Shown in pieces: positions 4,206 to 38,400 of a DNA stretch of 64,000 nucleotides. The notes below the pieces were generated by a model. The model searched no databases. It saw only the letters and a list, made by a program, of their open reading frames with translations, and was not told the DNA's origin. Each line of letters opens with the position of its first letter. Position 1 is the first letter of the stretch. Made by a program: the position numbers and the translations under genes. This DNA comes from Hirudo medicinalis (lineage: Eukaryota; Annelida; Clitellata; Hirudinida; Hirudinidae): positions 5,588 through 69,587 of the forward strand of contig MPNW01000064.1 in NCBI GenBank assembly GCA_011800805.1. The letters are read 5' to 3'.

Positions 4206-7200
4206 TCATTCCGTCACGCACATTATTTTGTTGGAAATAACTTTTTTGTCTCGAAAATATTTGTTTATGATAAAAGATTTAAAAACATGAAAAACAAGAA
4301 GTAAATCGTTTACTGTGGATTCGATGGAATTGGTCGGAGTTTCGTGGCAGGTTGCTGGAGAAACCACGTCGGAGGTGGTGAAGCAGGTGGAACTCGTGTT
4401 CTCCCGAGTCCTCGACGATGCTTCCAACTGCTCGAGTCTCGGAAGCATCTTTTCGGCAGACGACACGAAGTCCTTTTTGAAATTCCCACCTTTTGACATC
4501 TTGAGACCAAACGAATTTTCTTTGTCGCAAAAGCAAGATGGCGGCACGGATCTGTTTCCGTTGAGGTCGCGGTTAAACGTCATGGCGGTGTGCCGCCTCT
4601 TGCTCCTTCTGATGAGAAGCACGAGCAGGGTCAACGTACCACAAAGAACGAGCAAGCAGGCAAATCCTATGGAGACAACAAAGATCATGTAATACGATCT
4701 GCCTTTGTGACGGGATGTTGTCATGTGGTTCTCCATGAACAACTGGTTTTCCCAATTTTCTCTGAAGTCTTCAGGGGGGTTGTAGGGAACAGACGAGTTG
4801 ACGACCAGGAGGACGTTCGAACTCGACGAAAGAGAAGGTTTGCCTCCGTCTTCGGCAAGAAAACTCAGTCTGAAACTCCTGCCAGAAAGATTGGAGAGGT
4901 CGATTTTCGAGTAGAGCGTTCCTTGGAGGGGATCCACCGAAAATGTCGAACATTTCCTCGATCGACGCGTGTTTGGATTTGAAGGTGTCGTCGAGGTTGA
5001 TGCTGCAGTTGGTGAAATGTTTAAAACGGCTGAAGATTGAATTAATGAATGTTCGCTTTTTAAAGAATCCTTGTTGTTTTCAACAATCGTCTTGTTGTGA
5101 TACGAATTTCTAATTTGCTCGAAATTCATGCTCGCAAAGTCTGCACTGTCCTCTGCATCCCAAAGGTCTCTATTCAGTAATCTTTTGGTTTCAACCTCGT
5201 CGTAAAGCCTGCAATCGAGGAGCTGATACGTGACCTTTGCGTTCGAGTCGTGGTCAGCGTCCACGGCGGAGATGGAGATGATCGGTGTTCCAGGTGGAAA
5301 ATTACTCGACATGTGGAAGGTGGAATTCAGATTGGATGGGAAAACAAAGACAGGTGAATTGTCGTTTTGGTCCTCAACGTGTACGTTCACATTCGAGCTT
5401 CCCGACAGTGGAGGCTTTCCACGATCTTCGGCAATGACGGTGAAGTAAAAGGTGGGATGGGTTTCTCGGTTGAGGAGGACAGAAGTGTGAATTGAACCGT
5501 TACGAGAGTCGATTGTGAAGAAGTTCGAAGTGCTGTCCTGAGTGAGTTGAACTGCTCATGTATTTCAGATCAACTTGTAGAAATTATCACCAACATTAAC
5601 ATGCACAACGTGCTATCATCATCTTATAACCGCCATTTCCTGACGAGTATTTCATTAAATCCAGTAACGGTTACTTATTTAAATAAATTTATATCTTATC
5701 AGACATATCTTCAAGGTTGCTTAATTTGAAGAAGAAAGGAAATAAATGAGTTACTTTGATTTCATTTTACGTCATCATTACTAAAACTCCATTCAGAACA
5801 TTTTCAAACTTCCATAAATTCAATTTTCTATCTGGTTTTCAATCAATTTCATCTCTTTCTAATTCATCATTTCAGCGTAACTTCAAATGCTGAACAATTG
5901 AAGATTACTTAAAATTACTTAAAATTAATTATTGTGGATTACTTAAAGAGGGTGACCTCATTAATTACTCGTAAGTTATTCATTTATTCATGGGAATTAA
6001 TATTCATTTTGAAGATAGTTGACAAGACATCTTTATTAACTAATGAATGTTATTTCCGATCTCCAAATTATTAATAATAATAACAAAAATAAATAGTAAT
6101 AATAATAATAATAATAATAAATGTAATTATTATCGTCAACTTCATCGTCATCATCATCATGGTCATCGTCGTCGTCGTCATCGTCATAACAAGGTCTTGG
6201 AGTCGCACAGCAACACTGTCGGTAAGTCAATAAGTGAGGCCTTCCTACCAAGGTTGTAGAGAGCTTATGAAAGTTGCATTTTGAAAGAAGTGGGTCATTT
6301 CATAATTTACATCCTGCAGACTGATTTACAATTATTTTCTTAAATATGAGCACGTTACTGAAACAGACGTATTTGTAAGAATATTTGTGAAAACATATTT
6401 TGAGACTGGATTAAATAACGTAAAAAAATGATCAAAAGGACTTAAAAATGTCAACTGCCATCGTTAATTTATGCCGCACGTATTCACCTGGACGAGCGAG
6501 TAACGGATGTCCGTGTTGTCAGAGGCAAGATCGAGGTCCGTGGCAGATACATGACCGACGATTGTTCCAGGAAGTTGGTTTTCCAATATTTTGAAAATAT
6601 AATTACTTTCGGAAAAAACGGGATTCTGATCGTTGACGTCATCAATTAAAATGATGACGTCAGCAGTCCCTGTGCGAGGTGGTTCCCCGAAATCAATCGC
6701 AAGAATCTGTGACATTGTGAAAGGAGGGAATCAATTGTTTGTAAATAAAAATTAAAACCAAAAAACCAAATCAACCTTGAAGTGAACTTCGACCACGGAC
6801 TCTCTGTCAACGGGTTTAACAGCGTATATGTAGCCGTCATTTCGATCGACTGCAAAAGAATCTTTGCATTCAGTCGGTTCCCAGCCACTTTTGTCAATCT
6901 TGAAAAACACTTGACCGTTCAGTCCTAAGTCAGCGTCGGAGGCAGAAACGCCGAGTATGGGGTTGTTAGGAGCCACTTTGTTCTCCTGGATTCGTGCCGT
7001 GTAAATGGCTCTCGAAAAGACCGGGTCGTTATCGTTTTCATCGGCCAGCAACACCACCATGAACTTCACCGAAGTTTTTGGCGGCCTTCCTGAGTCCGAA
7101 CATGCTACGGTCAGCTTGTACCCCTGCGGTGCACTTTCTCTGTCGAGATGTCCTCCCGTCAGGACTTGATATTCTGTTTCGCCGTGGTGCGGTGAGGATC

Positions 7201-10086
7201 GTCTTGAAAGGCGGAATGGAGTGAAATTTGGTTGCGGTGGTCCGTCATTTTGGAAGTCCGCCAACTCTCTGTGTTTACATGGAGCCGAACATTTTATTAA
7301 CTCGGCTTTTTTGGAATCTCGAAAGGCTGGATGTTGCCTCAAAAGATTCAAATCCGTTGCGTTAATTTCTCCGACGAATCGTTTGTTGAATTTGCGCAAG
7401 AGAGAGTGGTTTTGGAGTTTCCTTCCATTTACGTCACGAGTGGCTTCCATTTGATCCAAAATGACGCAATCCACGGTTCCATTTTCTCCTCGGTCTGGGT
7501 CAACGACCGTGACCTGAGCCACGAAGGTTCCTGATGGGCTGTTTTCAGGCACAACTCCGATGACATCCTCGACGCCGTCAAAACTTGATGGCACTTCATC
7601 CGTGTTCTCGGTTGCTGCCAGGAGTGTGTTGATTGTTATTTCAGGCTCGTTGTCGTTCTCATCTTCCAGGTGAACGGTGACAGTGACATCTACAGGGTGA
7701 GAATCCGGACCTATTTAACGATAATATTTTACTATTTTGTAATTGCTTGTTTTTTTGGTTCAATCTAATTTACTTGGAATCTCAATTCTTTATAAACATT
7801 ATTTTTGAAATATGATGATAATAACATTTTATATTTGTTTTATAATTTTATCTACGTTATATTATACTATTTATCTATTATTTACTCTGATAATTGTGAA
7901 AATAAAAGAAAATCTGGCAACCTTCGTCTTCAGCAGTGATGATGAGTTGATAAGCAGGATGAACTTCTCTGTCCAACTTTCCGACGACAAAGATTTGTCC
8001 AGTGAGTTGTTGATGCCGAACACGTGTCCATACAAGACCCTCGTCTGCGAAGTGAGATCGTATCTGATTCGACCGTTCATTCCAAGGTCGGCATCAGTCG
8101 CTCTGACTCGCGTAACTTCTGTTCCTCTGGGAGAATTTTCGAAGATGCTAGTTTCGTAAGTTTGATGCTCGAAAATTGGTTCGTTGTCGTTTGAATCTTG
8201 GACGAGAATTGTTATGTTCATGGAGTCCGACCTAGAAATATGAAGGGCGTTTGCTTTTCCCAGGAGGAAATATCTCCATGTTTTATTTAGCGCAAACAAC
8301 TTGTGAATAATGCATCAGAAAGAAACTTGCAAACGATGACGGATGAAAAAGTAAAAAATTTGTTTGTCCCAAAAATACATTTCGCGTTCAACTCTTGTAA
8401 TTTCGTGCAAATGTTTCAGCAATAAGGAAGTGTTAGATGATTGATGAGTTAATTTTTCGATGCAGACAGGGTACAATTAAGCAAGAAATTCTTCCTGACA
8501 GCCAGTCCGTTGCAATTATGAAAGCCGTCAGAAATGTAAAGCATGTAAGCATTGCTTTCAAAGGAGGTGATGAAATAAAAAGGAAACGTGTTTAAGATGA
8601 AATTTGACTAATTACGATTTTCCAAACGAATGCCACCTGGGAAGATAACAAGCCAATTTAGCGCTGTTTGCGGGTCAGCATGATTGAGAAAAACATAGTA
8701 TTAATTAGAAAGTTATTAAATTTTCGCGATTGAAAAGATTTTTTGCGACATATTCTGTCAAATGAATTGACAGTTTTTAAAACTTATAAACGTGAGTCGA
8801 TAAATCTGACTTTGGCACTGGTCCTCCATCGTAAGCTGTCAGTTGAAGCCAATGAACGTCCTTCGTCTCTCGATCGAGTTTTTCCCTCAGCAGGAGTCTC
8901 ACCTCTAAAAATCCGTCCAACTTTTGCGAGGTGAGCAGACCAAATGTTCTGCTAGGAGTCAGACGAGAGAGTTTTTGAAGGTTGTATTCATGAGGATGTT
9001 GATCAGCAGTCCACTCCATCAACTCGTATCTCTTAACTCCGTACATGGGACTGTCTGGATCCATGGCTGGAGGTAGCAAGTAGGAGCTATTGATTGCAGA
9101 TGACTCTAGGATGTTCAGTTGGATGGAACGGTCACTGAAGCTTGGAGAATTGTCGTTGACGTCCAAGACTTCGACTCGAGCCTGCCAAGCATTTCCAGTG
9201 GATAATGAACAAGCACTTCATTTCAAAACGTCAACAAAAGATGCCGGTTACTTTGATAATCCTGAAATGCTCATAAGGTTGGACGGATAAATCGAGAGTA
9301 AAAGAGCAGTTTTTCTTCGAACGACACGAAGGCAAAGATTCTCTGTCGACGATGCCCCTGGTCCACACCATGCCATCCTTTGGACCAACCGACAGGGGTA
9401 TTGGGGGGTCGGTTGTGAACCTGAATTCCATGCCCTACATTTGTAATTTTACCTCAAATTAGTTTTCAATAAATTTGCCAATTTTTTACTACTTATTAAT
9501 TAAATAAAATATGTATTACTTAATTGTAATAATTATAATTAATTTTAAAATACAAAATTAAATTTTGAAAATTTATATTAATAACTAAGTGTTTGTGATA
9601 AAAGTTCGGCTAACTTTAAAGTGTTCATTACATTCTAGTGATTTATTTGAACTAAAGAAATATTTTTAACATATATAATCTTCAACATTTGCAAGTACTC
9701 AGACAAAAAGCGATCAATAATTTTTAAATACGAGAAATTTTCTCTGAAATAATTTATAAATTGCACACCAATGGACGACACTTTATATTTCTTACTCTTC
9801 TGCATCTTTAAAACGATGTGACACACGAGGTTGCTGCTCTCCGACAACATGGATGAAATTTAATCGTGTAGAGTTGTGGGAAATAATTGATAATAATTGA
9901 TCGATTCACCTGCAGTTGGTGTGAGGGCACGATTCTTCTTAGGCCAGAATCTGTAACAATATCACCGATCTTGGTTCCGATCGGGGAATCTTCGGGAATG
10001 GTGAGCAACACTCCAGTCTCCCGACTCTCGTACCCGATGGAGTTGGCGCTGCTTATTGTCATTGTTAGCATGAAGAATCCGATCAT
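4206..10086 (-). CDS. delta-type protocadherin, seven cadherin repeats (one frameshift)
   Basis: Single-pass calcium-dependent adhesion protein of the plasma membrane. Minus-strand coding exons, 5' to 3': 9910-10086, 9252-9434, 8811-9181, 7922-8231, 6776-7710, 6488-6706 and 4206-5537, about 1,175 residues. The start is ATG at 10086, 13 bases inside an exon whose acceptor is at 10099; a hydrophobic signal peptide follows (MIGFFMLTMTISS). The linker between repeats shows calcium-site motifs in order: DVNDNSP, DSNDNEP, DENDNEP, DENDNDP, DVNDQNP, DQNDNSP. LDRE-type motifs also occur, which fits seven ectodomains as in delta-1 protocadherins. One membrane span (IFVVSIGFACLLVLCG and on) is followed by RRSKRR and a roughly 150-residue tail. 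Exon 7922-8231 is one base too short to keep phase (see findings). The 3' end is uncertain: a possible donor at 4314 would replace the last 36 residues, which look intronic. Confidence 0.88.
6068..6190. repeat. (AAT)n and (ATC)n microsatellite in a protocadherin intron
   Basis: A run of about 30 bases of aat units, followed after 'atgtaattattatcg' by a short cat/cgt array. It lies between the exons at 5,537 and 6,488. Frames across it encode only repeat artefacts. Confidence 0.85.
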
Positions 10087-20786: not shown

Positions 20787-23355
20787 TTAAGCTTTAGCAA
20801 GAGCAACAACTGTGAAGTTCAGATTTGTGGGGTCCCTCTCCATAAATTTCTTCACCACTGCAACTGAATCCTGAAATGGAAGAGGCAAAGTTATGATAAA
20901 AACAGGTAATAACAAAATATAATGCTTCAAAATACTCATCACGTATGACGGCATTAAGAGCATTTTTGCACGACATTTCCGTGCCCGTCGCTGTTTTTTA
21001 TTGTTCGCGATCGACAGGTCGGTTTCCGTTCGCTCGTTCGTCGCCGAAGATGTTTTCGACGATCGTCCGAGTCATAAATAATGCATTCAAATATGCTAAT
21101 AATATGGTTAAAATCTTTTGTTGCTTTGGTTCTGTTATGGATGACCCCTCAACCTTTTATGTCTTTGGCGAATTTCAGAACAAAGTCTCAAATTTTTTGA
21201 ACCAAAACAGCTGAAAGACAGGATTAAAAAAGTCACCTCTAAAAGCGTTTCCTCTGTTGTCGGTCCGTGACTCACGGGTCCGTTCCTACGACCATCTGCA
21301 ACGCAAACTCAATTAATGAACATCTCTGTGAATGTCATCAAACCAAACTACAGCGATTAAAAATATATGCCCACATCTTCAGCAACATATAACGATTCAG
21401 AGTTCGATCAGCAGAACTTTAAGAGCACAAAAATAATGCACCTTAAATAATAAACACATCTCCTTAACATGTTTTAGGCGTCTCACAAAAACTTTATAAC
21501 TGATTAAAAAGCGGCTTGTTGGAAACACTGGCAATTTATGATATCGCTGTGCTGATATCGCAATTTATGATATCCTAACAGTAGAAAAAAATGAAACCGA
21601 ATTCATTTCATAATTTGGCAATGTTTCAACGACTCATTTATAAATTAGCAAATAAAATATATTTATTCTGATAACATGAGGATTGGCCCAATTAGGTGCA
21701 TTCCTGCACTAAGCATTATATAACACGTTGGCAACCCAGCCTTAAACAGCCCGTGCCAACCTTTACATAGGGGTGCCATACAAATGCTAGAGCGATTGAA
21801 AAGAGCCTTCGCATCCAATTCAGACAGAATTCGTCAAGACATCTAAATAATATAAATACAAATCCCGTAGAAAAAAGGTATAATACCGAGTTCATAAAGA
21901 GTTCCTCCGTAATGAATGAAAGCTACAAAATGGAGATCAACCTTTTCATGTCTTGATGGCACCTGTTTAATAAAGTAAACAGTAAATCATTAATTTTAAG
22001 ACATGTGAGATGATCAATGGAGAATCTTCAAAGAAGAAATAACACCTAAAAATATTGAAGCAATAAAAGCTGACTGACTCTAGTCTGGCCTTCTTTTGCC
22101 ACCTCCTCGTGCACCTCTCCGAATGCCTACAAATATTTCACCCGATAAATTCACTAGCCGCTCGGCAATCGCTACAAAATTGTCGTTATCTCTAAATTTC
22201 TTTTAATTTTTTAAGCAACGATAAGCACGAAGAAATCAATTAGACCGAATCTGATTCTAGAAGTTTGCCTCTTTCTTGAGGGGTCATGTTCTTTGTGTCC
22301 CCCAAAAATTTGCTGAGATGTTTCTCTTCTGATGTAACAAAATTAAACAAAATGTCATTCTAACAAAATTCTAAGACGAGATTTCCTAAATATTACTTAC
22401 TGTCAAAACCAAGTTGGTTAGCATTGTTTAGAAGAGCATGTATGAGACCAATAGTCCCACAAGCATTTCCTATGCTTTGCCTGATAAAATACACTTCAGG
22501 TGCCTCTACTTCTTTCCCTATTGCAGTACTTTGACTCTAAGAAATATTTTAAATCTTATGAAATCAACATTCCAAAAAAAACAAAGTAAATTTAACTTTG
22601 CATATGCAACAAAATGAATGAATTATTTCAAAAATGATAAAAATAAATAATTTAATGCACAGAAGAAAAACTATCTAAACAAAAAAAATGCAAGCAAACT
22701 GAAAACCTGTACTGAGAGAGGAAATAAAAGCAAAACAGCCACAACTGGTCTTGGAATCAAAGATAACATTTCTTGTTCAAATGTAAACACATCAACAAAC
22801 TCCCAGTCCTTTTTCACACCTAACTGCCTAAGATACTAGACAAAATTTGAAGGAAACACATTAAAAAAACAACATAACAAAACATAATGCAAAATAATAT
22901 GTTAATGACTGCACTAAAAGCTTATATAAACTGATTGACTTGTCATCACATTCTTCTCAAACCTTTTGCTCAGGGCACAGAAGCAAAAGAGCAATGACTG
23001 GCCGTTTTAGGGCTTTAAGACCCTCTTCGGTCAAATCATATATGTCATGAAACGACCATTCATTGGAAACCCCAAGTTTCCAGGCATACTAGCATTTTTG
23101 TTAATAAAATAAAGATTAGTGAGGCACAAAACCTTACTTACTTTAAATATATTACAATTATTCTAATAATTTATAATTACGAAAACCATTAACACTAGAT
23201 CAAAGTTGATAAAATTAATGTGAAAACTGTTACCTTGTTCATGACCTGCACAGAAAATAAAACGAATTTAGTAACTTTAGTGTATGCATGAACAAATTTC
23301 CAAATATAGTAACCTCAGGATTTGATTCTAACGGTAACCATCTAGTTTGGCTCAT
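20787..23355 (-). CDS. ubiquitin C-terminal hydrolase, UCHL1/UCHL3 type
   Basis: Cytosolic cysteine protease (peptidase C12) that removes small adducts from the C terminus of ubiquitin. Minus-strand exons: 23314-23355, 23234-23245 (12 bases), then 22963-23088 (exon A) or 22707-22835 (exon B), 22401-22536, 22246-22328, 22079-22126, 21887-21962, 21237-21295 and 20787-20870. All phases agree, giving 221 or 222 residues, close to UCHL1 (223) and UCHL3 (230). It starts [14 protein letters not shown], as in UCHL3. The catalytic Cys is in [12 protein letters not shown] with the oxyanion Gln seven residues before it, the His is in VDLHFVAF and the Asp in LYELDGR. The end, FTVVALAKA, resembles UCHL1. 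Exon A/B duplication and the microexon are described separately. The upstream neighbour, about 740 bases away and also on minus, is eS25. Confidence 0.93.
22707..22835 (-). CDS. UCHL alternative exon B
   Basis: 129 bases, phase 0 at both ends, preceded by a ctag acceptor and followed by CAG|GTTTTC. It encodes 43 residues beginning [16 protein letters not shown] and containing [13 protein letters not shown]. It is the copy closer to vertebrate UCHL1/UCHL3 in this region, so it is probably the ancestral form. Confidence 0.9.
22963..23088 (-). CDS. UCHL alternative exon A
   Basis: 126 bases, phase 0 at both ends, same ctag|TA acceptor form as exon B, donor AAG|GTTTGA. It encodes 42 residues beginning [16 protein letters not shown] and containing [13 protein letters not shown]. 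It aligns end to end with exon B with about 17 of 42 identical residues by hand count, so it is a tandem exon duplicate, separated from exon B by 127 bases. Confidence 0.9.
23234..23245 (-). CDS. 12-base microexon of UCHL
   Basis: Reads GTCATGAACAAG (V-M-N-K) between a ctgtgcag acceptor and a gtaaca donor, phase 0 on both sides. It fills exactly the gap between NPE (exon 1) and the Y of exon A or B, matching M-L-N-K at this place in UCHL1. Confidence 0.85.
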
Positions 23356-35450: not shown

Positions 35451-38400
35451 TTAACAACTGAGATCCAAAACTTCCTTCATTAACGGTTGGATGCCTTCAG
35501 GATTAACTTTGAGGAGAACTTGAGAATGTTCTTCATTCAAATTTCTGATATCGGTCAGCTTCATAAGGAGTCTTGGAAAAAGAGACCTAGCAGTGGGGAC
35601 AGGATATATGGACTCTAAATAGTTCTTCAGAAGAGCCGAGTACCGTTCTTGCTCTGCTGCAACGAGACTCTGGTATTCCAGGTTGTCTCTGTCTGGAGAG
35701 AAGAGGGAGATGACGAGCAAGAGGATGAGGACGGTGTTATCAGCGCAGAGATCGAACGCCAACGATCGAACAAAACGCATGTGGTCTTCAAACAATCCCG
35801 TTCCATTCTCGGCTCTTTCCAGTTGTTCTAATTTCATTGCTTTGGTTTCCTCGTGATCAAAAGGGTCGAGAAAGTGTTGTTTCTCTTTGTCAAAAGTGAT
35901 GACCGAACGAAGGATGAGCAGTTCTATGCTGCCTCCCTTCAGCAGGTGAATTTGTTCGACTTGCGGCAGGTCCTTGAAGGCGGGCACCTATGAAGTGATT
36001 AGAACACGTTAGAAAATAACGACTTCAGAAACCATTTAAGTTTCGTATTTATTGTAAAAATTGCTGCAGCACGTGCCGCATTATTTATAATCATTTGATT
36101 AAAGGATTCTAACCTGCTTGGCCATAGCAATAACTCTTCTAACGCTCAACTCGGCAATGTTGACGAGATCAGAAAAATTGGCTTCGTGTCGTGAGACGTC
36201 CCTTTCTATGCTCACCTGTAATCAGTTCAGATGACGTTAGTCTGAAGATCCACGGAGGCATTAAAAACAATTGAAATATAAAAGGCATTGTAAACTGTTT
36301 GCAACCTCTAGTGAGTTACTATAAGCAACATGTAGCTCGTATATGGCATTGTTGTCTGCAGCTGATAATGGGGTTGTATGACTAAGGATGGGTATCATCG
36401 GCTGAGGGGGACACGCGGGAATGTACGGCATGCCACCCACTGCTCCTGCAACGATTCCCACTGAACAGTGATCGTAATCCACTCTTGGTCTAACTCTGGA
36501 AAAAAAAGAAATTTAAGGTTAATAAACTCGAAGGCTCGTGTGTGTGAAGACCACAAGTGGGAGCTTTTGTGACCGCGTGTAGGAACAAGGCAAGCAGAAA
36601 TAAGTGCAGAGCAAATAAAGCAAACAGCCTCTTCTCTTGGGCATCAGAAAGTTCCATAAAAGTCCTACCCATGAAAGTACATATGGGAATTTATGGGAGA
36701 ATTATTTACAGATTGTCTTAAGAATAAAATTCAACACATAAATACAATACAATCGTCATCTCTTCTGAACTCAGGAAAACTTATTGACTCTGAACTCGTG
36801 ATCAAATAATCGAACGTTCTCATTACTTATCGAAACACTTGCTCACTTCAAAGCAAATTAATACATTATTAAGGATGTCATCATCATCATCACCATCACC
36901 GTCATCATATTCATCGCCATCGCCATCATCATCATCATCATCATCATCATTATGATGATGATCATGAAATAACAACGATCAATGTCTTCACATTAATTTT
37001 CTTGTCCGATACCTATTGGCATTCATTCAGTTTGTCTTTTGTAAATTTCTAATAGATATCTAATAATTAATGATGGCATGCAAATCGTTTGAAGCAAACA
37101 ATATTGTTGAAATAAAATATCAGATGCTAATGTTCTGATTTGGTCAAGAATGAGGCCTCCACGTGAGTCTTCGAGAATAAACACGGATGATTGATGGCAA
37201 TGAATTGATCAAAGTTTGCCTTAAATTTGAATAATCAATGAACTCCGATGACCGGAAAATCTCAAAAATTAATGGAAATAAACTTTCAAATATCGAAAAT
37301 GATAAATCAACAAGGCTGAGAAGCGATATTTACTCGTGTTCCATGGTTGAAGGTGACCTCTGGGGTGCCATCTGAGAAATTTGAGGAGTGTGAGACTGCG
37401 GTGGAGGAGGTGGTGGAGGGTGGAGAGTTTGGTGGTGATGGTGGTTGTTGTGATGAAGATGGTGGCTGGTGCTCTTCGATGTCGATGGATTTGATGATGA
37501 ACTTGTGGCAGCACCGCACATGCGTCTCAGGAAGCGGTTGTCTTCGATCTTCTGCCTTTTTTGAGCCTTTTCTTCCTCAGAAAGGATATATTCTTTGCGC
37601 ATTCCTATTTCGAAACACTTTTTCAATCTGCATCTTTTGCAGAATCGTCGGTTCGATAAATCCATCTTGCATTTCTCATCGTAGGGGCACTTAAAGTAAC
37701 CCTAAAATTTGGGAATGACAAAATAAAATTTTAGATGAAAATATTGCGAATAGCAAATCAATTCTACTCACCAATCCTTTAGGGGCATTTCTTCTGAAAA
37801 ATGCTTTACATGATTCACATGAGATGGCATCAAAGTTAAATCCAAGGGCTTTGTCTCCACAAACACCGCAAATTTTTTCTTCTTTATTCTTCCTGTTTCT
37901 GTTTTGGGTGCCTCCACCACCACTGGACTGGGAAGATGGCGACGAATCCATATGGCTTTCCATGAGTCCCTGACCGCAGTACATGCTTCCGCCGCTCAGG
38001 GAATCAGGATCCACTTTGAGCTCCAGCTCTCTGGGGTAACCAACGATGGAGGACTCCCCATATCCGTAATAATCTCTCCTACCATCGCCTAGACGAATGC
38101 CTGGGAAAGGTTTAATGTTTTCAATTAGTTGAATCATAACCTTACTAATTAACGCAAGTACACCACGAAACCTTCAAAATATCTACTAGGAAATAAGATT
38201 TATTTGCAAACTTATAAAACAGCACGTCATTGAGAATGTTTTACATAAATTTGGGAACATTGAATTTTCGAACGACGAACAGTTTCAATGAACTTTGAGC
38301 TCGAACACCAGTCATAACCCAGTAGGTGCAATTGAAGCTGGTCACAAGTAACAAGTCACAAGTAATGGAGAACTTTCGAAAATGTTGGAACAAACGAGTT

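What the first reader, a model, noticed from the sequence alone, without database searches (positions are those of the whole stretch)
22707..23088. Tandem duplicated alternative exons in a ubiquitin C-terminal hydrolase
Two consecutive exons (126 and 129 bases, both phase 0/0, both after a ctag|TA acceptor, 127 bases apart) encode the same segment of UCHL1/UCHL3: ...LGV--(N/D)W-F-D... to RPV-A-LLL-P. By hand they share about 17 of 42 residues. Vertebrate UCHL proteins have this segment once, so the layout is the classic one for mutually exclusive splicing. It would give two isoforms differing in the stretch before the catalytic Cys. Both exons keep frame, so inclusion of both is not excluded by frame alone. 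I do not recall this being described for UCHL genes.
Basis: partly seen in the sequence, partly recalled or inferred. Interest (0 to 1): 0.78.

Follow-up and report, generated by a model that had tools for sequence, protein, structure and literature searches.

The report
Swappable exon pair in UCHL3 deubiquitinase
A single ubiquitin-cleaving enzyme gene in a leech-like worm carries two interchangeable versions of the exon that helps it grip ubiquitin, and a related worm appears to make both protein versions, so one gene probably yields two enzymes.

Summary
The window holds a complete, apparently single-copy UCHL3-type gene on the minus strand (8 constant exons plus A and B, all GT-AG). Exons A (42 aa) and B (43 aa) encode the same piece of the fold and share 17 of 42 residues. 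A-only and B-only readings give one full C12 peptidase domain; A+B is in frame but splits it, and skipping truncates it. The key evidence is from a relative: contig proteins P0008 (A-type) and P0011 (B-type), organism unnamed, are identical at 178 of 178 positions outside the segment and 19 of 43 inside, and identity resumes exactly at the window's B/e3 junction. Six A-type sequences form one clade on the segment (99/97, 35 rows) but not on the rest of the protein (p 2e-53). So this is an old exon swap in annelid-like worms, not a recent copy. Exclusive use in this species, its splicing mechanism and the functional difference are untested. I found no earlier report in an open-access library. 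A new, conserved member of a known kind.

The parts
23314..23355 (-). constant exon 1, [14 protein letters not shown] (start codon at 23355)
   Evidence: aligns to the start of human UCHL3
23234..23245 (-). constant exon 2, a 12-nt microexon, VMNK
   Evidence: VMNK is present in annelid homologues
22963..23088 (-). alternative exon A (variant), 42 aa
   Evidence: A-type clade with 5 unnamed homologues
22836..22962 (-). 127-nt intron between A and B
22707..22835 (-). alternative exon B (like UCHL3 elsewhere), 43 aa
   Evidence: 41 of 43 identical to P0001
22401..22536 (-). constant exon 3, carries the oxyanion Gln and catalytic Cys (NACGTIGL)
   Evidence: alignment to 1uch; residue roles recalled
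22246..22328 (-). constant exon 4
22079..22126 (-). constant exon 5
21887..21962 (-). constant exon 6, carries the catalytic His (VDLHF)
   Evidence: residue role recalled
21237..21295 (-). constant exon 7 (the codon of the catalytic Asp in DGRR is split over e6/e7)
   Evidence: residue role recalled
20787..20870 (-). constant exon 8 with stop codon

Best explanation
This is a single UCHL3 gene of an annelid, probably a leech, with two tandem homologous exons, one of which is joined between exon 2 and exon 3 in each mRNA. Exon B gives the standard UCHL3. Exon A gives a second enzyme with the same catalytic residues, in which the unit made of the end of helix 1, strand 1, a short helix and strand 2 is replaced. 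Both exons keep Asp33, the residue that in UCH enzymes lies by residue 72 of ubiquitin or NEDD8. A changes the next residues in a fixed way (Asp36; Ser/Thr/Gly at 38 in place of Asp/Glu; Gly/Ala at 41). The likely effect is a tuned affinity or preference for ubiquitin, NEDD8 or their conjugates, or for a partner. Shown: gene structure, both full readings, common descent of A-type segments, and both forms as uninterrupted contig proteins in a relative. Inferred: mutually exclusive use in this species. Speculative: the functional difference.
For: Gene model complete, all GT-AG. A-only and B-only give one full C12 domain. P0008/P0011: 178/178 identical outside, 19/43 inside, common suffix of 163 residues starting exactly at the e3 boundary. 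P0002/P0004: 169/177 outside, 22/43 inside. Segment tree of 35 rows: six A-type rows one clade 99/97; P0008+P0011+P0006 as a clade rejected p 0.0012, P0002+P0004 rejected p 0.0085. Rest of protein: the A-type rows as a clade rejected, dlnL 180.7, p 2e-53 (isoB stood for the window, the identical pair P0008/P0011 was left free). The triple D36 / non-acid 38 / G-or-A 41 is in 6 of 179 sequences, the six A-type ones. A- and B-type proteins of one relative are predicted with equal confidence (mean pLDDT 87.7 and 88.1; block means 95-97 over residues 21-50) and both match 1xd3, UCHL3 with ubiquitin, first. UCHL3-level matches at one locus only.
Against: No RNA from this species. A+B and skip are both in frame, so frame does not force exclusivity. 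No enforcing device was found: donors look U2-type (by eye); intron pairing is no stronger than in shuffles (as low in 230, 74 and 124 of 300); branch-like motifs inside the AG-free stretch lie 61 and 102 nt from the A donor, not under 50 (a third, at 36 nt, lies before that stretch). For the window's own pair (isoA, isoB, P0001), a recent duplication is not rejected at 5% (p 0.063). In a wider 52-row segment tree the A-type rows were not recovered as a clade. isoB resembles the A-type P0002 (24/43) almost as well as the B-type P0004 (25/43). The A-type group was named after seeing the alignment.
Confidence: 0.86

Rival explanations
1. Both exons are joined in one mRNA, giving a 264-residue protein with a repeated segment.
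For: The A+B reading is in frame and its summed Pfam score is the highest of the four readings, 258.6 bits.
Against: It would insert a second copy of a core strand-helix-strand unit; Pfam sees two stretches instead of one. None of 177 listed homologues has a double segment; for the 120 the length limit would have admitted it. A relative has single-segment proteins of each kind.
Confidence: 0.04
2. Exon A is a dead or dying duplicate that is not used in this species.
For: Exon A has a pyrimidine-poor acceptor (10 of 20, the lowest value among the 9 introns, shared with e4-e5), one residue fewer, and a long branch (0.69) in the wider segment tree.
Against: Open frame with intact splice sites; chance of no stop in 42 random codons of this base make-up about 0.05. 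The A-type signature is kept. Between the window and two relatives, A-A identity (24/42, 20/42) is close to B-B (25/43, 22/43).
Confidence: 0.07
3. In relatives the A-type and B-type proteins come from two paralogous genes, not one spliced gene.
For: The contigs of the relatives cannot be read here; 5 of 5 outside A-type proteins are unnamed.
Against: 178/178 identity outside the segment in one pair, with the switch exactly at the exon junction of the window's gene; the window itself shows both exons in one gene.
Confidence: 0.05
4. Cassette or loose alternative use of A as an extra or skipped exon rather than strict mutual exclusion.
For: No exclusivity device was found in the sequence; many neighbouring similar exons are not spliced exclusively in human (PMC5740500, passages seen).
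Against: Skipping loses the first 72 positions of the domain profile; no double segment among the listed homologues. Skipped forms were not searched for.
Confidence: 0.08

Closest known systems
coq-2 mutually exclusive exons of helminths, annelids and molluscs (PMC7434440, passages seen)
   Same: Single enzyme gene, two homologous exons that remodel the enzyme core, one like other animals and one special, found in annelids; the swap changes which product is made
   Different: Different enzyme; the effect of the swap was tested there by exon deletion in C. elegans, nothing comparable here; UCHL3 exon A is not tied to a known metabolite or life stage
Human UCHL3 (1uch, 1xd3) and UCHL1 (2etl, 3ifw)
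   Same: Same family and fold; window B and A forms match UCHL3 best by sequence, and the relative's A- and B-type models match 1xd3 first
   Different: One copy of this segment in those proteins; whether the vertebrate genes hold an unannotated second exon was not tested here
Mutually exclusive exon clusters of vertebrates and insects (PMC5740500, PMC9013439, passages seen)
   Same: Adjacent, homologous, in-phase exons of near-equal length; swap of one structural unit
   Different: Frame does not enforce exclusion here; the main text of PMC5740500 has no occurrence of UCHL

Membership tests
mutually exclusive exons (MXE) | adjacent internal exons, similar length, same phase and frame | tested here: met
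   126 and 129 nt, both phase 0/0
mutually exclusive exons (MXE) | exons homologous, encoding the same part of the fold | tested here: met
   17/42 identical, score 81 vs shuffle maximum 16; same secondary-structure elements through the segment in the A- and B-type models of a relative
mutually exclusive exons (MXE) | transcripts with A alone and with B alone exist | tested here: inconclusive
   in a relative, uninterrupted contig proteins P0008 and P0011 fit this; no RNA of this species is held
mutually exclusive exons (MXE) | double inclusion and skipping absent or non-functional | tested here: inconclusive
   no double segment in 177 listed homologues, 120 of them from a search whose length limit admits it; domain split or truncated; skipped forms not searched for; reads lacking
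mutually exclusive exons (MXE) | known enforcing device (frame, U2/U12, steric, RNA pairing) | tested here: not met
   none found (donor type by eye). A device is common but does not define the class
UCHL3 (peptidase C12) | full-length C12 domain | tested here: met
   PF01088 positions 1-211 in both forms, 222 and 228.8 bits
UCHL3 (peptidase C12) | catalytic Gln, Cys, His, Asp and ubiquitin-contacting Asp33 kept | tested here: met
   alignment of both forms to 1uch; Asp33 invariant in 44 of 44 fetched proteins aligned. Catalytic roles recalled
UCHL3 (peptidase C12) | deubiquitinase activity of both forms | not testable with these tools
   needs enzyme assays

The most novel reading that the evidence does not exclude
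An annelid-wide (perhaps older) splice switch re-tunes the ubiquitin/NEDD8-facing unit of the single UCHL3 gene, so that one gene makes two deubiquitinases with different preference for ubiquitin, NEDD8 or their conjugates, analogous to the coq-2 substrate switch.
Probability: 0.3. Interest if true: 0.8.

Novelty: new member of a known kind. Interest (0 to 1): 0.6.

Why it matters
As far as I recall, UCHL enzymes are treated as single forms. A conserved natural swap of the unit that holds Asp33 gives a ready-made pair of enzymes, with three consistently changed positions, for asking what sets ubiquitin against NEDD8 preference. A single residue at this spot shifts that preference in UCH37, though not in PfUCHL3 (PMC6837540, passages seen). 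It would also add a core, apparently single-copy enzyme to the known exon swaps of annelids such as coq-2.

Tried and rejected
Recent duplication in this lineage: disfavoured by the segment and rest-of-protein trees, though p 0.063 for the window's own pair. Collapsed or paralogous loci: disfavoured for the window (all 10 candidates scored; the other two C12 loci, C31 and C446, reach only 16.4 and 20.2 bits and were not identified). Competing intron pairing, steric block and U12 incompatibility: looked for, not supported (donor type by eye). Repeat search of the gene: AT-rich short repeats and the A/B exon similarity itself. A search that scored only residues 13-60 of the A form (end of e1, e2 and A) found no candidates. 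A search with the N-terminal parts of 8 A-like sequences listed 120 of 1965 hits and added no further protein with the full A signature. Octopus, Argonauta, P0118/P0123/P0124 and a scorpion protein (P0154) look partly A-like but lack the full three-residue signature, so I do not claim the A exon outside the six sequences. Holding the A-type rows together without P0020 was also tested: p 0.157, not rejected, P0020 nests among them. Literature: the listings showed no report of alternative exons of this kind in UCHL genes; open-access library only, and only the papers cited were opened.

Rows dropped: trees used 52 rows, 35 and 34 of the 179 aligned sequences, chosen by me to cover annelid-like worms and other phyla; the A-type group was named after seeing the alignment. 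The 'outside' identity counts leave out four alignment columns just after the segment; one search covers those for P0008/P0011.

Full report
WHAT IS THERE. The minus strand of 23355-20787 holds a complete UCHL3-type gene. I built it from the raw sequence: e1 23355-23314, e2 23245-23234 (12 nt), A 23088-22963, B 22835-22707, e3 22536-22401, e4 22328-22246, e5 22126-22079, e6 21962-21887, e7 21295-21237, e8 20870-20787 with stop. All introns are GT-AG. With A the protein has 221 residues, with B 222, with both 264, with neither 179; all are in frame.

IS IT MORE THAN CHANCE. A and B share 17 of 42 residues; the alignment score of 81 compares with a maximum of 16 in 2000 shuffles. By codon position 18, 28 and 17 of 42 bases agree: second positions agree best, as expected if protein sequence was preserved. 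No third copy lies in the 9 introns (best score 29).

THE GENE. The B form matches human UCHL3 (1uch) at 3.6e-73 and UCHL1 (2etl) at 8.3e-60; the A form UCHL3 at 1.2e-64 and UCHL1 (3ifw) at 7.2e-56. The C12 domain covers profile positions 1-211 as one stretch in both forms; A+B gives two stretches (summed score higher, 258.6 bits, as both copies count), skip covers 73-211 only. A search of the window's own 133-Mb assembly with the A form finds UCHL3-level matches only at this locus; two other loci reach 20.2 bits (C446) and 16.4 bits (C31).

HOST. The rest-of-protein tree puts the window and P0001 next to Helobdella (82/91) in a group with Capitella. The assembly has 46 antistasin-domain matches (the 14 control genomes have none, but I do not know that they include animals). 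I infer a leech or near relative. The assembly is smaller than three published leech genomes of 157.5-203.7 Mb (PMC10087013, passages seen). The species is not identified.

RELATIVES. One search (A form as query) found 1379 proteins, of which the 120 best were listed; (8 A-like N-terminal parts) found 1965 and listed 120, 57 of them new. The 177 listed proteins and the two window forms, 179 sequences, were aligned. P0008 and P0011 are identical in 178 of 178 aligned positions outside the segment and in 19 of 43 inside. Their common start is 20 residues, ending MNKYV, and their common end is 163 residues, beginning SEL, which is exactly where e3 begins in the window (SQS). Because each transcript of the window's gene would have 8 introns, uninterrupted proteins on contigs of 2053 and 2392 bases are most simply cDNA; I could not read the contigs. 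This is what two splice forms of one gene look like. P0002 and P0004 are a second, looser pair: 169/177 outside, 22/43 inside. Other A-type proteins are P0015, P0017 and P0020, without a listed partner of the same species (nearest outside identities 134/158, 132/161 and 104/160). All five are from unnamed sources.

AGE. On the segment alone (35 rows), the six A-type sequences form one clade with 99/97 support; grouping P0008 with P0011 and P0006 is rejected (p 0.0012), P0002 with P0004 too (p 0.0085); grouping isoA with isoB and P0001 is not quite rejected (p 0.063). On the rest of the protein (34 rows, isoB standing for the window, the identical pair P0008/P0011 left free) the same A-type rows cannot be one clade (dlnL 180.7, p 2e-53). 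In a wider 52-row segment tree the A-type rows stood unresolved; with 43 columns this is not surprising, but it is against me. P0020 falls outside the Capitella-Helobdella group on the rest-of-protein tree (weakly with Lingula, 88/70), so the A exon may be older than that group. Between species, A-A identity is 24/42, 20/42 and 25/45 and B-B identity 25/43, 22/43 and 31/43: A is held about as well as B in two comparisons and clearly less well in the third.

WHAT DIFFERS. Across the six A-type and 14 B-type sequences of the same part of the tree, position 36 is Asp in 6 of 6 A and 0 of 14 B (Gly in 11); 38 is Ser, Thr or Gly in 6 of 6 A and Asp or Glu in 14 of 14 B; 41 is Gly or Ala in 6 of 6 A and Leu, Met or Val in 14 of 14 B. 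All three together occur in 6 of 179 sequences, the six A-type ones. Asp33 is kept in all 20. In PfUCH37, changing the equivalent Asp to Glu nearly removed NEDD8 cleavage and left ubiquitin cleavage; in PfUCHL3 the same change was only mildly inhibitory and not selective (PMC6837540, passages seen). That paper places the residue of UCH37 near residue 72 of ubiquitin and NEDD8. Human UCHL3 D33A is used as an inactive mutant (PMC7297794, passages seen). So the swapped unit sits at a known specificity spot, but the residue itself does not change, and a specificity change is a hypothesis. By my own alignment from recall, the UCHL1 polymorphism S18Y also falls in this segment.

STRUCTURE. P0008 (A) and P0011 (B), each with a 44-row alignment, give mean pLDDT 87.7 and 88.1 and the same elements through the segment: helix 13-22/23, strand 29-33, helix 39-42, strand 49-57. 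Both match 1xd3, UCHL3 with ubiquitin, first (E 1.5e-25 and 3.7e-28). So an A-type protein is predicted to fold as well as a B-type one. The models are of the relative, not of the window's protein, and the alignments mixed A- and B-type rows.

SPLICING MECHANISM. Frame does not force exclusion. Donors look U2-type by eye. The A-B intron is 127 nt with 73 AG-free bases at its end and branch-like motifs 61 and 102 nt from the A donor inside that stretch (a third, at 36 nt, lies before it), against the under-50 rule for steric block used in PMC5740500 (passages seen); e3-e4 is only 72 nt. Intron-intron pairing is no better than shuffles (as low in 230, 74, 124 of 300). Exon A's acceptor has 10 pyrimidines of 20 against 15 for B, which would fit B as the default and A as the regulated form; but e4-e5, a constant intron, also has 10, so this is weak. 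Failure of the double and skipped proteins to fold would add selection for exclusion; this is inference.

COMPARISON. The nearest parallel in kind is coq-2, where annelids, molluscs and helminths swap one exon, shown in C. elegans to set which quinone is made (PMC7434440, passages seen). The listings showed no report of this exon pair in UCHL genes. The library is open-access only, and genome annotations of named annelids were not searched.

VERDICT. Real, conserved and very probably a mutually exclusive pair. New for this gene family as far as I could search; the class of event is known. Interest 0.6. The odds of the rivals overlap (for example, paralogues in a relative would not exclude splicing here), so they do not sum to one with the best explanation.

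Noticed in passing
window about 24575-24095 (-): An RPS25-like (eS25) gene lies just upstream of UCHL3 on the same strand, its stop about 0.7 kb before the UCHL3 start codon; identified by eye.
   Followed up: no
window 23234-23245 (-): 12-nt microexon VMNK. The Mercenaria protein named isoform X2 (P0038) lacks exactly the corresponding VLNK, so this microexon may be skipped in a clam.
   Followed up: partly
P0022 (Lingula anatina): A 270-aa UCHL3 prediction holds a different segment (GGNNFLANFLAKTKDISPDERAKKLEIDP) twice; another exon duplication or an assembly error.
   Followed up: no
P0154 (Hadrurus spadix): A scorpion UCHL3 reads DVVDLSDDML, with two of the three A-type marks.
   Followed up: partly
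window 4206-5390 and 6752-7594 (-): Cadherin/protocadherin-like open frames, by eye.
   Followed up: no
window 35451-35987 (-): Open frame resembling a nuclear receptor ligand-binding domain, by eye.
   Followed up: no
own genome, e.g. contigs C189, C1178, C353, C36: 46 antistasin-domain matches, several clustered.
   Followed up: no
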